This document shows positions 13,498 to 18,270 of a stretch of 64,000 bases of DNA, piece after piece. The position numbers and the translations under genes were made by a program. The notes under the pieces were generated by a model that was given only the letters and a program-made list of their open reading frames with translations, had not been told where the DNA came from and searched no databases. How positions within the stretch are numbered: the first letter of the stretch is position 1; every line of letters begins with the position of its first letter. The DNA is from Jannaschia sp. CCS1 (lineage in GTDB: Bacteria; Pseudomonadota; Alphaproteobacteria; Rhodobacterales; Rhodobacteraceae): the NCBI RefSeq assembly GCF_000013565.1, contig NC_007802.1, forward strand, positions 3,224,001 through 3,288,000, given 5' to 3'.

Positions 13498-13956
13498 ATG
13501 AACCGCAGACGTGTTTTGATCGGCGTGGGTGCGCTGGCGCTGGTCGCAGGCACCTTTGCTGCCACCGAGGGCCGCAACCTATTCTACGCCGCCCTGTCTG
13601 AGGGTGTGGAGCGTCAGATTGACGTGTCCACGGCCCATGATCTGGCGCGCGAGGGGGAGATCGTATTGATCGACATTCGCCGACCCGATGAATGGGAGGC
13701 AACAGGCAGCCCCGCCTCCGGCCACCGCCTCGACATGCGCCGCGATGATTTCACCGACGCCCTGCTGGCACTGACGGGCGGCGATACCGATGTGCGCGTG
13801 GCGCTGATCTGCATGCGTGGCGTCCGGTCATCACGGATGACCAACCGCCTGACCGAGGCGGGCTTCACCCAGATCATTGATGTGCCCGAAGGCATGCTTG
13901 GCTCTGGGGCGGGGCCCGGCTGGATCAGCGAAGGGTTGCCCCTTGACCGCACGTAG
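13498..13956 (+). CDS. membrane-anchored rhodanese-like protein
   Basis: 152 residues. A short N-terminal hydrophobic segment (RRVLIGVGALALVAGTFAA) could be a signal anchor. The single rhodanese domain has the CDC25-like start VLIDIRRPDEW and the active-site Cys in ALICMRGVRSSRM. Such proteins pass sulfur or act as persulfide carriers. It begins 1 nt after the Sco stop, so a periplasmic partnership with Sco and the two Cys-rich proteins is likely. The 3' end overlaps the likely TTG start of the esterase gene by 14 nt. Confidence 0.8.
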   Translation: MNRRRVLIGVGALALVAGTFAATEGRNLFYAALSEGVERQIDVSTAHDLAREGEIVLIDIRRPDEWEATGSPASGHRLDMRRDDFTDALLALTGGDTDVRVALICMRGVRSSRMTNRLTEAGFTQIIDVPEGMLGSGAGPGWISEGLPLDRT

Positions 13957-14854
13957 ACCGCACCGCGCCCCGCGTGACGCTGGCGAAATCCCTTGCAAGG
14001 GATTTGTCAGAGCCTTGCAAGGCTCTGGCCAGGCTTTTGCAAAAGCCTGGCTTGCGCTTGTGGCAACGTCCAACACAGCCTTTGCCGATTGCGCTGGAAC
14101 ACCCGGCCCGTGCGAACTTGCATCCGGCGAATATCACATCACCTTACCGGAGGGCGAAGGCCCCTTCCCCGCGATCATGATGTTGCACGGCTCGGGCGGG
14201 CGTGGCGACGGCATGGTGAACATGCTGGCTGAGGCGGTCACGGCGCGCGGCTACGCCCTTATCGGCCCCCAGGGTCTGCAACGGGAAGGCTCCCGCTTCG
14301 GGTCCACCTGGTCGTTCCACCCCGACTTCACGCCGGTCCGCGATGAACCCACTTTTCTGGCTGATGTCCTCTCTGACGCCGCCGACGTTCACAATATCGA
14401 CCGCGATACGGTAATGGTTGCGGGCTTCTCAATCGGAGGGTCGATGACCTCCTACCTGGCCTGCTCCACCCCCGACATCGCCAGCGCCTACGCGCCCGTC
14501 GCCGGGGCTTTCTGGCGGCCGCACCCGGCGCTTGACGCCTGTGCCGCACCCGTTGACGTCCTGCACACCCACGGCTGGTCAGACGGTACGGTCCCCATTG
14601 AAGGGCGCGTGTTCCGCGACGGCGCTGTCCGCCAAGGCGATGTCTTCGCGTCCATGGAGATCTGGCGCGAGACGAATTCCTGCGACCGATCCGCCCCGGA
14701 CCAGATCACAAACGAGGGGGAGTACTGGCACCGCATCTGGTCATCGTGCGCGGGGGGATCGCTGCAATTTGCCCTCCACCCGGGCGGCCATGCGGTGCCG
14801 CGCGGATGGGTGGATATGGCGCTGGACTGGTTTGAGGCATTGCCGGACCACTAG
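13943..14854 (+). CDS. secreted alpha/beta-hydrolase, PHB-depolymerase/LpqC-like esterase
   Basis: About 303 residues. The Ser nucleophile is in GFSIGGSM, the oxyanion loop is MLHGSGGRGDG, the Asp is in HGWSDGTVP and the His is in HPGGHAVPRGW, so the triad is complete; the pattern fits the LpqC/feruloyl-esterase branch of PHB-depolymerase-like enzymes. No ATG is available near the conserved part. The TTG at 13943 is preferred because GAAGGG lies seven bases before it; a hydrophobic stretch (AKAWLALVATSNTAFA) then gives a plausible signal peptide. Codons for much of that signal region come from the three palindromes at 13986-14051. Confidence 0.75.
   Translation: MTARRPHRAPRDAGEIPCKGFVRALQGSGQAFAKAWLALVATSNTAFADCAGTPGPCELASGEYHITLPEGEGPFPAIMMLHGSGGRGDGMVNMLAEAVTARGYALIGPQGLQREGSRFGSTWSFHPDFTPVRDEPTFLADVLSDAADVHNIDRDTVMVAGFSIGGSMTSYLACSTPDIASAYAPVAGAFWRPHPALDACAAPVDVLHTHGWSDGTVPIEGRVFRDGAVRQGDVFASMEIWRETNSCDRSAPDQITNEGEYWHRIWSSCAGGSLQFALHPGGHAVPRGWVDMALDWFEALPDH
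13986..14051. repeat. three phased perfect palindromes sharing a TTGCAA core
   Basis: 13986-14005 is AAATCCCTTGCAAGGGATTT; 14008-14027 is CAGAGCCTTGCAAGGCTCTG; 14028-14051 is a 24-bp palindrome whose inner part is CAGGCTTTTGCAAAAGCCTG. All are perfect. Their centres (13995.5, 14017.5, 14039.5) are exactly 22 bp apart, about two DNA turns. They lie between the rhodanese stop and the conserved part of the esterase. They could be binding sites on one face of DNA, a REP-like element, or RNA hairpins. Confidence 0.9.
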
Positions 14855-14881: not shown

Positions 14882-16759
14882 TTATTCCGCAGCGCGTGGC
14901 AGGTCTTGCAACGATGCGCGCAACTCCGCCCGATGCGCTTTGGCCGCCTTGATGATTGGCGGGGCGGCATAGACCTCTGGCGTGCCCAAAGCCCGTGTCG
15001 TCGCCCGAAACCGCGTCAGGCGCAGGCCCGACAGCGCCGACAGGGGCACCGCAAACGCCAGGGAAATCGCAATCGGCAACAGCCACAGCGACACGATGCC
15101 CGCGACCATGCCGGTGATCATCGCTATCCCGGCAAGGGTCTCCAACACATGAAACTGCATCAAGGCCCAGAGCGAGTATCGCCCACCCGCACGGGCCTGC
15201 GGGGTCCAGTCGATCCTGAGGCCAAGCACCGTCTTCCCAACGGCGAGTGTCTGCTGCACCATCAGGATCGGGGCAAAGAGGATCGACAGGATCAGCTCGG
15301 TCACAAAGGACGCCGCGAAGCGAACAACGCCGCCGAGTTCCGCAATCCGGAGGCCTACACCGCCCACAGCCGCCGCGCCTAGCGCCTTGGGAGCCAACAA
15401 CATTCCGTACATGAAGACCAGGAGGGCCGTGGAATGAACGGCCGTCATCTCCGGCCATTGCACCTGCGGGTTCCGGCCCGAGAAGTAGCGGATAACGTTT
15501 TGTTCCTCGCCCGTTCCGATCAACGCCCAGACCATCAGCAATGCGAACCAGGCGGGGCTCAACAGATAGCTGATCGCCCCATGGAACATGTGGAAGCGAC
15601 TGACGCCGTGAAACCCCTTGGCGGCCAGTAATTTGAGGTGTTGCAGGTTGCCCTGGCACCAGCGCTGGTCGCGGATCACATAGTCGATCAGTGTCGCGGG
15701 GACCTCCTCATAGCTGCCCTTGATGCGCGGCGAGAAGCGCACGCCCCAGCCCGCGCGCCGCAAGAGCCCCGCCTCCACGAAGTCATGGGACAGGATCAAT
15801 GCGCCGTCCTTGCCCGACAGCGTCCGGATTTTTGGTAGCCCTGCGCAGGCGGCAAAGGCCGCGGTGCGGATGATCGCATTGTGGCCCCAGTAATTGCCCT
15901 CCCGGTCGCTCCAGGTTGCCAGACCTTCCGCCAGCACCGAGCCATATATGGTGGACGCAAACTGCTGCACACGGGCGAAGACGGTCTCGGCACCATAAAG
16001 TTGCGGGAAGCTCTGGATCAGGCCTGCTGTGGTGTCGGTCGACAGCTCATCGGTCAGCGCCACAATCGCGTCGCCAGACATAAGGCTATCGGCGTCGAGG
16101 ACCAGCATCGCCTTGAACCCACCGCCCCAACGCTCCACCCAATCGGCGAGATTGCCGACCTTGCGGTCAATATTCTCGGCCCGCCTGCGATAATGGATGC
16201 GGATGCTGTCGGGCAGCCGGGCGCGCAGGGTCGCGAAGGCGCGCAGCTCCTGCTCGGCCGTCGTTGCGTCGCGGGTGTCAGACAGGATGAACAGCGTGTA
16301 GCGGTGCTGCGTCGGACGCGCGTCGAGCGCTTCCAGCATCGCGCAGGCATTGCCGAACACGTCCCAGGGCACCTCATTGTAGCAGGGCACCAGAAGCGCC
16401 ACGTCCATCGCGGGGCCGGTTTCGGGCGCGGCGCGTTTGCGGGTCAGGATCAGCCGCAGGATCCCCACCGTCACGGTCGACACCGACAGCGAAATCCAGA
16501 AAAACGTGATCGCGATCAGGGCGATAAGAACCATCTCAAAGCCAGTCAGGCCGCCCATCACGAACCAGTTGGTGAAGGCCGCCACGAGGCCAAAGGTCGT
16601 CACGAACGCGGGCAGAAATGTCGCCAGCCGCCAAAGGCCCGCGCGGCCCCGGCCCAATCCCGGCGCGCGCACATCCTGGTAGGGCGCACGCAGGTTCTGG
16701 ATCGGGCGCGGCAACCGCGCCTCAGACGGCATATAGGGCTCGTGCAGCGGCGCGCTCAT
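14882..16759 (-). CDS. opgH: OpgH/MdoH glucans biosynthesis glucosyltransferase
   Basis: 625 residues. A GT2-type cytoplasmic domain carries DADSLMSGD, an ED-like base region, and the QRW motif in VIRDQRWCQGNLQHL. Membrane helices flank it on both sides (for example LATFLPAFVTTFGLVAAFTNWFV near the N-terminus and several after residue 400). OpgH polymerises UDP-glucose into the beta-1,2 backbone of osmoregulated periplasmic glucans and moves it across the inner membrane. The start at 16759 overlaps the opgG/D stop by 4 nt (ATGA); a longer frame exists but is not needed. Confidence 0.93.
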   Translation of the reverse strand: MSAPLHEPYMPSEARLPRPIQNLRAPYQDVRAPGLGRGRAGLWRLATFLPAFVTTFGLVAAFTNWFVMGGLTGFEMVLIALIAITFFWISLSVSTVTVGILRLILTRKRAAPETGPAMDVALLVPCYNEVPWDVFGNACAMLEALDARPTQHRYTLFILSDTRDATTAEQELRAFATLRARLPDSIRIHYRRRAENIDRKVGNLADWVERWGGGFKAMLVLDADSLMSGDAIVALTDELSTDTTAGLIQSFPQLYGAETVFARVQQFASTIYGSVLAEGLATWSDREGNYWGHNAIIRTAAFAACAGLPKIRTLSGKDGALILSHDFVEAGLLRRAGWGVRFSPRIKGSYEEVPATLIDYVIRDQRWCQGNLQHLKLLAAKGFHGVSRFHMFHGAISYLLSPAWFALLMVWALIGTGEEQNVIRYFSGRNPQVQWPEMTAVHSTALLVFMYGMLLAPKALGAAAVGGVGLRIAELGGVVRFAASFVTELILSILFAPILMVQQTLAVGKTVLGLRIDWTPQARAGGRYSLWALMQFHVLETLAGIAMITGMVAGIVSLWLLPIAISLAFAVPLSALSGLRLTRFRATTRALGTPEVYAAPPIIKAAKAHRAELRASLQDLPRAAE

Positions 16760-18270
16760 GGGGACCACCGGTACAGCCACACCTCGGTGGCCGTCTCCTC
16801 GCCGTCGAGCAGTTGCGCGCGCAGTTCCATTGACGGATGGTCGCCCGGCTCCACGGCGAAGGTCAACCGCAGCCCGCCGGTGCGCGGATTGCGTTCCAAC
16901 ACGCCGTCCGTGACCTCACCGCGATTGGTGCGGACGATCCTGGTGTAATCCTCCGGATTGCCCGCCAGCGCCGGATGATCGGCAAAATCGATGGACACCA
17001 GCGTGCGCGAGCGGTCCCAGTTGCCCCCAATCGCAGTGTTCAGGACGGGGGCAACGTCGCGCGGGCGCGGCGGCTCCGCACTCCATTCCATGTTGTAGCT
17101 GAAACGCACCTCTTGCCCCGCGATCAGGCCGTTGCGCGGACGCCAATAGGCGACGATATTGTCGTAGACCTCTAATTCCGACGGGATCTCCACCAGCTGG
17201 ACGGAGCCTTCTCCCCAGCTTTCCCCCGGCGTTATCCACAGGGACGGGCGGTCCTGATAATGGGCCTCGAAATCTTCAAAATCCGCGAGGCTGCGGGCCC
17301 GCTGCAGAAGGCCGAAGCCCCGCGGCCCCGCATCCACGAAGGACGAAACCTCCAGTTGACCGGGGTTCTTCAACGGCCGAAAGAGCAGCTCACCCGCGCC
17401 GTTGTGGACCAGCAACCCGTCACTGTCGTGGACGGCGGGTCGGAAATCATCGTGGCCCGCGCGGTTTGTCTGGTCGAACAGGAACATCGACGTCAGCGGA
17501 GCGAAGCCCACATGGGGCAGGTCCACACGCGGATAAAGCGTGACCTCCACGGACATGCGCGTGGCTTCACCGGGATCGATGCGGAACGTGTAGGCCCCGG
17601 TGCAGCTGTCGCCGTCCAGAAGCGCGTGGATGATTTGCGTCGCATCACCCGGCTGCGGGGCCTCCAGCCAGAAGCGCGTGAATTCGGGGAATTCTTCCCC
17701 CTCCGGCCCGGCCGTGTTTATCGCAAGACCCCGGGCGGAGAGACCATAGTTCATACCGGTGCCGATGGCGCGGAAGTAGCTGGCCCCTTGGAATACGGCG
17801 AATTCGGTGAAAATATCCTCCCGCTCCAAAGCCGCGCGCAGACGCAGGCCGGAATAGCCCATGGTTTCATCCACAGGCAGCTCAGGAAACTGGTCGGTCA
17901 TGTCGAACAGTGACATGTCAAAGGCCAGTGTTTGCGCCGTGCCATCCTCGACCACATTCACCTCCACCGGGCGGGGGAAGTAGAGGCCGGGATGGAAGAA
18001 ATCCACCTTGAAGGGGCGGTCTTCGTCGGTCCAGAGCCCGCGCTGGGGGTTGAACCACATCATGCGGTATTCGTCGTAAGTGAGGTTGCGCCACCCCTCG
18101 GGTACCTGCGGCATCGGGGCGTAAGGCGCCTGCGACAGGCGCAGGGCCTCTGCCTCTAACCACGCGCGGTCAAAGGGATGGGCGGAGCCCTCCCGGAACA
18201 TGGGCAGGCCGAGCGCAGGCGAGGCCATGGCCGCGGCGAGGAGCGCCAGCGAGGAGCGGCGCGACATCAT
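16756..18270 (-). CDS. opgG: periplasmic glucan biosynthesis protein OpgG/OpgD with Tat-like signal
   Basis: 504 residues. The N-terminus MMSRRSSLALLAAAMASPALG has a twin-arginine-like signal, as OpgD proteins do, although the overall match is to the shared OpgG/OpgD family (SGLRLRAALEREDIFTEFAVFQGASYFRAIG, WRPRNGLIAGQEVRFSYNMEW). These proteins shape or cleave the glucan backbone in the periplasm. The start at 18270 overlaps the opgC stop (ATGA). The symbol opgG is used for the family; opgD is equally possible because of the signal type. Confidence 0.88.
   Translation of the reverse strand: MMSRRSSLALLAAAMASPALGLPMFREGSAHPFDRAWLEAEALRLSQAPYAPMPQVPEGWRNLTYDEYRMMWFNPQRGLWTDEDRPFKVDFFHPGLYFPRPVEVNVVEDGTAQTLAFDMSLFDMTDQFPELPVDETMGYSGLRLRAALEREDIFTEFAVFQGASYFRAIGTGMNYGLSARGLAINTAGPEGEEFPEFTRFWLEAPQPGDATQIIHALLDGDSCTGAYTFRIDPGEATRMSVEVTLYPRVDLPHVGFAPLTSMFLFDQTNRAGHDDFRPAVHDSDGLLVHNGAGELLFRPLKNPGQLEVSSFVDAGPRGFGLLQRARSLADFEDFEAHYQDRPSLWITPGESWGEGSVQLVEIPSELEVYDNIVAYWRPRNGLIAGQEVRFSYNMEWSAEPPRPRDVAPVLNTAIGGNWDRSRTLVSIDFADHPALAGNPEDYTRIVRTNRGEVTDGVLERNPRTGGLRLTFAVEPGDHPSMELRAQLLDGEETATEVWLYRWSP

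What the first reader, a model, noticed from the sequence alone, without database searches (positions are those of the whole stretch)
13986..14051. Three perfect palindromes with a shared TTGCAA core, phased at 22 bp
Two 20-bp palindromes and one of 24 bp follow one another, with centres exactly 22 bp apart, about two DNA turns. The cores match while the arms differ, so they are not simple copies. They also supply codons for the signal-peptide region of the secreted esterase. Options: an operator for a regulator binding one DNA face three times, a REP/RPE-like selfish element, or a set of RNA hairpins between rhodanese and esterase cistrons.
Basis: seen in the sequence. Interest (0 to 1): 0.65.

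Follow-up and report, generated by a model that had tools for sequence, protein, structure and literature searches.

The report
Palindrome arrays behind stop codons
The three palindromes are one copy of a repeated DNA element that these marine bacteria keep right behind the ends of genes, where it can fold into a row of hairpins; it resembles known bacterial REP repeats but is built differently, and its function is still inferred.

Summary
They are not a local accident. The genome holds at least 14 similar arrays of 2-4 palindromes. 7 of 13 genus genomes carry them, and related arrays occur in other genera.

The unit is a 20-bp palindrome, roughly CA-NNN-YY-TTGCAA-RR-NNN-TG, with 2-3 bp spacers. 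Arrays sit at gene 3' ends: 55 of 56 lie beside a stop codon that points at them, median gap 8 bp. Orthologous arrays persist where flanking DNA is about 80% identical. Of 2205 stem-pair comparisons, 2072 were identical, 114 changed on both sides with pairing kept, and 19 changed on one side; 195 of 374 comparable spacer positions differed. G-U pairs are absent from co-directional arrays (0 of 990 cells).

Best reading: a REP-like 3'-end hairpin array, acting on mRNA and possibly on translation termination. No GTAG or CGTC tag is enriched and no RAYT was found in this genome. In the window it lies behind the rhodanese gene and is read in frame as the start of the esterase. An operator is not supported.

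The parts
13986..14005 (.). palindrome 1, AAATCC-CTTGCAAG-GGATTT (20 bp)
   Evidence: perfect self-complement; all stem pairs identical in G004 (L209)
14008..14027 (.). palindrome 2, CAGAGC-CTTGCAAG-GCTCTG (20 bp); the commonest unit of the family (25 of 186 units scored)
14028..14051 (.). palindrome 3, GCCAGGC-TTTTGCAAAA-GCCTGGC (24 bp; the 20-bp unit is 14030-14049), the terminal type
   Evidence: 53 of 58 TTTTGCAAAA-type units sit at array ends against 31.0 expected
13498..13956 (+). rhodanese-domain gene; its stop codon lies 29 bp before the array
   Evidence: PF00581; ORF
13943..14854 (+). secreted esterase (alpha/beta hydrolase) ORF from the TTG start shared with relatives; the array is in frame inside its N-terminal (signal-peptide) region
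   Evidence: PF02230; start and Shine-Dalgarno comparison; translation
14882..16780 (-). family 2 glycosyltransferase; in G004 the array lies directly between the rhodanese gene and the orthologue of this gene, with no esterase between them
   Evidence: PF13632; L209

Best explanation
A member of a dispersed family of 3'-end palindrome arrays of Roseicyclus-like Rhodobacteraceae, REP-like in kind. SHOWN: each array is 2-5 palindromes of about 20 bp, 22-23 bp apart, usually within 15 bp behind a stop codon; arrays stay at orthologous places and keep perfect pairing through double changes. INFERRED: the nascent mRNA folds into a row of 8-10 bp hairpins right behind the stop codon. This row blocks 3'-to-5' exonucleases and probably slows or marks the terminating ribosome, setting the stability and output of the upstream cistron. 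Because each unit is self-complementary, one array serves both genes of a convergent pair. At the window locus it would act on the rhodanese transcript; it is also translated as the first part of the esterase.
For: Position: 55 of 56 arrays have a stop codon pointing at them (22 convergent, 33 co-directional, 1 divergent), median gap 8 bp, 41 of 55 within 15 bp. In a named second set, 39 of the 41 arrays that could be classed (1 edge case among 42) point the same way, with 35 of 39 gaps at 11 bp or less. In the co-directional arrays the stop is near (median 9 bp) and the next start far and variable (median 49 bp). Both strands of the window array fold into three hairpins, z -5.17 each. Stem pairs are conserved (2072 of 2205 identical) with 114 two-sided and 19 one-sided changes while 195 of 374 spacer positions differ. 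Central non-complementary bases (TTGAAA, TTGGAA, TTTCAA) are tolerated, as in a loop. No T-run follows (mean 1.09 T in 8 nt), so it is not an ordinary intrinsic terminator. REPs within 15 nt of a stop codon are reported to stall ribosomes and lower translation (PMC12306157, passages), and known REPs lie near 3' ends (PMC3733652, passages).
Against: No transcript data. RNA structures normally tolerate G-U (recalled), yet 0 of 990 stem cells in co-directional arrays are G-U, and 21 of 33 distinct double changes are transversions with no G-U step, so selection or conversion acts on DNA or on both strands. Six of 13 genus genomes show no match to the strict pattern, so it is dispensable. Some orthologous 3' ends within array-bearing species lack it (dnaB in G004 and G008). 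The window gap is 29 bp, outside the 15-nt ribosome range. In the window a ribosome translating the esterase would unfold the hairpins.
Confidence: 0.5

Rival explanations
1. DNA-level element: the palindromes act as duplex or as extruded cruciforms between genes, for example as sites for gyrase or a nucleoid protein at the ends of transcription units (as BIMEs do in E. coli, recalled), with 22-bp phasing setting units on one face.
For: Strict Watson-Crick symmetry, 0 of 990 G-U cells in co-directional arrays; transversion-type double changes; fixed 22-23 bp spacing (116 of 130 spacings); conserved core and CA...TG ends.
Against: Variable arm bases need not be symmetric for a dimeric binder; non-palindromic centres occur in several arrays of other genera; the tight tie to stop codons is not predicted by DNA binding alone.
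Confidence: 0.25
2. Mobile or selfish palindromic repeat (REP/REPIN or RPE-like) spread by copying, with arm symmetry kept by hairpin-templated correction during replication and no host function.
For: Shared unit types among non-orthologous arrays (CAGAGC in 25 of 186 units); patchy distribution in genus and family; in-frame copy in the esterase; one-step correction would explain missing one-sided intermediates.
Against: No Y1 transposase in G000 and at most borderline hits in the 7 array-bearing genus genomes; arrays stay at orthologous places; pair changes are far rarer than spacer changes, which correction alone would not give; the one array-lacking site aligned (G012) is not a clean insertion with target duplication.
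Confidence: 0.15
3. Bidirectional transcription terminator or insulator without a U-tract, for example Rho-linked, between compact genes.
For: 11 of 22 convergent arrays fill a gap with 35 bp or less on each side; symmetric units work on both strands; gene ends on both sides.
Against: No T-run; in 17 of 33 co-directional cases the next start is within 50 bp, leaving little room for a new promoter.
Confidence: 0.08
4. Operator bound three times on one DNA face, regulating the esterase.
For: Phased identical cores upstream of the mature esterase sequence.
Against: Family lies at 3' ends of unrelated genes; G004 keeps all 27 stem pairs of this array where the esterase is absent.
Confidence: 0.02

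Closest known systems
REP elements and BIMEs (GTAG superfamily)
   Same: short dispersed hairpin-forming repeats close behind gene 3' ends, between convergent or co-directional genes (PMC3733652, passages)
   Different: no GTAG tag, no RAYT in this genome, fully symmetric units, fixed 22-23 bp arrays of 2-5 units, variable arms kept complementary
CGTC-tagged REPs of alphaproteobacteria
   Same: alphaproteobacterial, without a dedicated transposase, 3'-adjacent, sometimes intragenic (PMC3733652, passages)
   Different: no evident CGTC tag enrichment; the CCA tail was not tested; those are mostly head-head dimers
Rickettsia palindromic elements (RPE)
   Same: a palindromic repeat read in frame inside a protein gene, as in the window esterase
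   Different: in-frame location noted only at this locus; most copies are extragenic
Rho-independent terminators
   Same: GC-containing hairpins behind genes
   Different: no T-run after the array; two to five hairpins; often inside tight co-directional gene pairs

Membership tests
REP (GTAG superfamily) | unpaired GTAG at one end of the palindrome | tested here: not met
   GTAG 2 and CTAC 1 in the end flanks of 78 arrays
REP (GTAG superfamily) | associated RAYT (Y1 tyrosine transposase) in the genome | tested here: not met
   PF01797: 0 in G000; 4 of 15 array-bearing genomes at E<=0.001, 3 over the cut-off; in the genus only G008 (22.9 bits) and G003 (21.2 bits), borderline
REP (GTAG superfamily) | dispersed, extragenic, close to gene 3' ends | tested here: met
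CGTC REP | CGTC tag at one end | tested here: not met
   CGTC 10 and GACG 16 in the end flanks of 78 arrays; no shuffle control was run, and by a rough estimate from base composition this is near chance
Rickettsia palindromic element | in-frame insertion within protein genes | tested here: inconclusive
   in-frame at the esterase; not surveyed elsewhere
Rho-independent terminator | T-rich tail after the hairpin | tested here: not met
   mean 1.09 T in 8 nt on both sides of 78 arrays
Known Rfam family | score above a curated threshold | tested here: not met
   only a tRNA elsewhere, and a Plant_SRP match at 10.8 bits against a cut-off of 105
MITE / insertion element | target-site duplication at a filled versus empty site | tested here: inconclusive
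   one array-lacking site aligned (G012 against G006 L298), no clean junction

The most novel reading that the evidence does not exclude
A family-wide class of 3'-end elements in Rhodobacteraceae whose selected feature is perfect self-complementarity on both DNA strands: arrays that drift only by coordinated two-sided changes, with clade-specific cores (TTGCAA, TTCGAA, TTGGAA), and that act as symmetric punctuation between genes through DNA or two-strand hairpins.
Probability: 0.3. Interest if true: 0.75.

Novelty: new variant of a known kind. Interest (0 to 1): 0.55.

Why it matters
REP-like repeats are usually discussed as RAYT-driven repeats or as ad hoc mRNA hairpins. Here a RAYT-less genome keeps a 3'-end repeat in place across species, with stems better conserved than the spacers between them and with near-absolute Watson-Crick symmetry. 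That makes it a natural test of what selection acts on in bacterial 3'-end palindromes: RNA hairpin, DNA structure or replication-coupled correction. The literature searches made here showed no description of this family in the open library; subscription papers were not covered.

Tried and rejected
Operator reading: rejected on 3'-end location and on the array being kept in G004 without the esterase. Rfam family: none. RAYT: absent in G000. Pure correction without selection: disfavoured because stem pairs differ in about 6% of comparisons and spacer positions in about half. Convergent versus co-directional arrays were compared for mismatch types to separate RNA from DNA selection; too few mismatches to decide. 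An apparent G006-only array (L298) proved to be shared with G002, whose first unit has a TTTCAA centre that the strict pattern misses, so strict counts are lower bounds. The other G006-only array looked up, L304, matched G002 and G012 in its left flank but was not aligned further.

Rows left out: in the ortholog count I left out by hand L232, L235, L236 and the pairs L214/L243 and L013/L230. One search repeats the count where unit numbers match: G003 loci show more two-sided changes (6 to 12 per comparison) and 0 to 2 one-sided ones. One search has 56 arrays from 53 of 54 loci; L204 gave none by script. Of 20 stretches from other genera, the script found 19 arrays in 18; L291 has none and L275 was not picked up although its palindromes show. 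G104's ten matches, of which seven are listed, are nearly identical copies of one sequence and I did not count them as arrays.

Detection bias: genus arrays were found through a CTTGCAAG pair (or, in G000, through similarity to the window array), and units through at most one mismatch in nine pairs, so heavily decayed units are undercounted. At the two loci reached through flanking genes alone arrays were either well formed or not visible in the 330 bp shown; at the first of them the script picked a wrong stop for G003, whose array is seen as L229.

Full report
OBSERVATION. The three palindromes are exactly as described: 13986-14005, 14008-14027 and 14028-14051, with centres 22 bp apart. No other perfect palindrome with 10-bp arms lies in the 64-kb window; simulations gave a mean of 0.25.

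A GENOME-WIDE FAMILY. The window lies in a 4.40-Mb genome. The window array itself has 39 matched stretches there at E<=10, and the pair CTTGCAAG-N14-CTTGCAAG (up to 2 mismatches) has 21 forward places against 0 for the reversed control. I looked at 14 arrays in this genome; a few further places were not fetched. Over 56 arrays from six genomes (186 palindromes) the unit is a 20-bp palindrome with core TTGCAA in 167 of 186, outer CA...TG, variable middle bases, and centre spacing of 22 (85) or 23 (31) of 130 spacings. TTTTGCAAAA-type units sit at array ends in 53 of 58 cases, 31.0 expected.

DISTRIBUTION. The strict pair is in 7 of 13 genus genomes (9-22 places each), in 0 of 24 other genera of the family in that set, and in 1 of 24 genomes of other families as a single place. 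A named scan finds arrays in Roseicyclus sp., Roseibacterium persicicum KMU-115, Rhodobacterales HKCCSP123 and HKCCE4037 and UBA8790, so the genus is Roseicyclus-like. With a free centre (CTTNNAAG twice), 43 of 295 family genomes match; 13 have three or more matches, whereas the reversed control never exceeds two. One of the 13 (G104) is set aside, because its listed matches are nearly identical copies of one sequence. Twenty stretches from nine genomes of other genera show arrays of the same build with cores TTCGAA, TTGGAA, TTCCAA and TTGCAA in all but one. In a two-protein tree the array-bearing G003 groups with array-free genomes, yet shares array positions with the others, so loss is likely.

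POSITION. By codon-model gene calls, 22 of 56 arrays are between convergent genes, 33 between co-directional genes and 1 is divergent, against 19 divergent of 44 array-free gaps in the same loci (Fisher p 1.5e-7). These loci were chosen for arrays, so the control is not independent. In 42 named loci: 17 convergent, 22 co-directional, 2 divergent, 1 edge, against 41 divergent of 138 array-free gaps (p 7e-4). The gap to the nearest stop codon has median 8 bp, 41 of 55 within 15 bp. In the L206/L241/L299 group a TTGAAA centre appears in place of TTGCAA in the unit that overlaps the gene end by 12 bp; I infer that its TGA is the stop codon.

EVOLUTION. Sixteen orthologous groups (52 arrays, 70 comparisons) give 2205 stem-pair cells: 2072 same, 114 two-sided changes with pairing kept, 19 one-sided (about six distinct cases by my reading of the list). 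Distinct double changes number 33, 21 of them transversions. Spacer positions differ in 195 of 374; the central dinucleotide differs in 25 of 245. Flanks are 75-93% identical to the first member of each group. Arrays from G003, partly left out there, changed more but almost always on both sides. At the window locus all 27 stem pairs equal those of G004, while the spacers differ. G-U is absent from 990 co-directional stem cells; one A-C and six other mismatches occur. So both the sequence and the symmetry of the stems are conserved, and G-U is not used as a tolerated step.

THE WINDOW LOCUS. Order: rhodanese (PF00581), array, esterase (PF02230), convergent glycosyltransferase. In G001, G005, G007 and G009 the esterase starts at a TTG overlapping or next to the rhodanese stop behind AAGGR, with no array; G002, G008, G010 and G011 use an ATG with its own leader, also with no array. 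G000 keeps the TTG and AAGGG, and the array sits in frame inside the extended N-terminus. G004 has the array behind the rhodanese gene and next the glycosyltransferase, no esterase between. The array therefore follows the rhodanese 3' end rather than the esterase. A downstream start inside the array is also possible and cannot be excluded; the codon-model caller placed the esterase start 8 bp behind the array.

MECHANISM. Both strands fold into three hairpins (z -5.17 each). There is no T-run. The closest functional precedent is REP: an exonuclease barrier and, within 15 nt of a stop codon, ribosome stalling (PMC12306157, passages seen; PMC3733652, passages). I take this as the likeliest role (0.5). 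The missing G-U pairs are the main result against an RNA-only account and keep a DNA or two-strand role open (0.25). Papers were read as passages only, never whole.

NOVELTY. A new variant of the REP-like kind: it meets the dispersal and 3'-position features, fails the tag and RAYT features, and adds symmetric phased arrays. No description was found in the searches, which cover open papers only.

Noticed in passing
L181 (G007), behind the esterase orthologue: A cluster of GTTCANNTGAAC palindromes (3 in 19.6 kb of G007 stretches, 0 in stretches of six other genus genomes) lies between the esterase orthologue and the next convergent gene; perhaps another 3'-end palindrome family in an array-free genome.
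   Followed up: partly
L179 (G005), behind the esterase orthologue: Three near-copies of GACCATTTGGTC / GTCCATTTGGTC lie between the same two genes.
   Followed up: no
L059, L073, L085, L099, L105 (Bacteroidaceae Horse_feces99): Repeated CCTTGCAAGG cores exactly 22 bp apart on many contigs of one Bacteroidaceae genome, with only partly symmetric arms; the scan selected for this core and spacing, so relation to the present family is open.
   Followed up: partly
L246 (G008): At the orthologous 3' end of a radical SAM gene the core is TTCGAA in all four palindromes, where five other genus genomes have TTGCAA.
   Followed up: partly
L037, L240, L224 (between dnaB and the next gene, recalled as alr): The end of the array reads CCTTGACG, so its last bases may double as the -35 box of the downstream gene.
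   Followed up: no
G104 matches: Ten CTTCGAAG pairs, those listed being nearly identical copies of one sequence on different contigs; probably an unrelated repeat.
   Followed up: no
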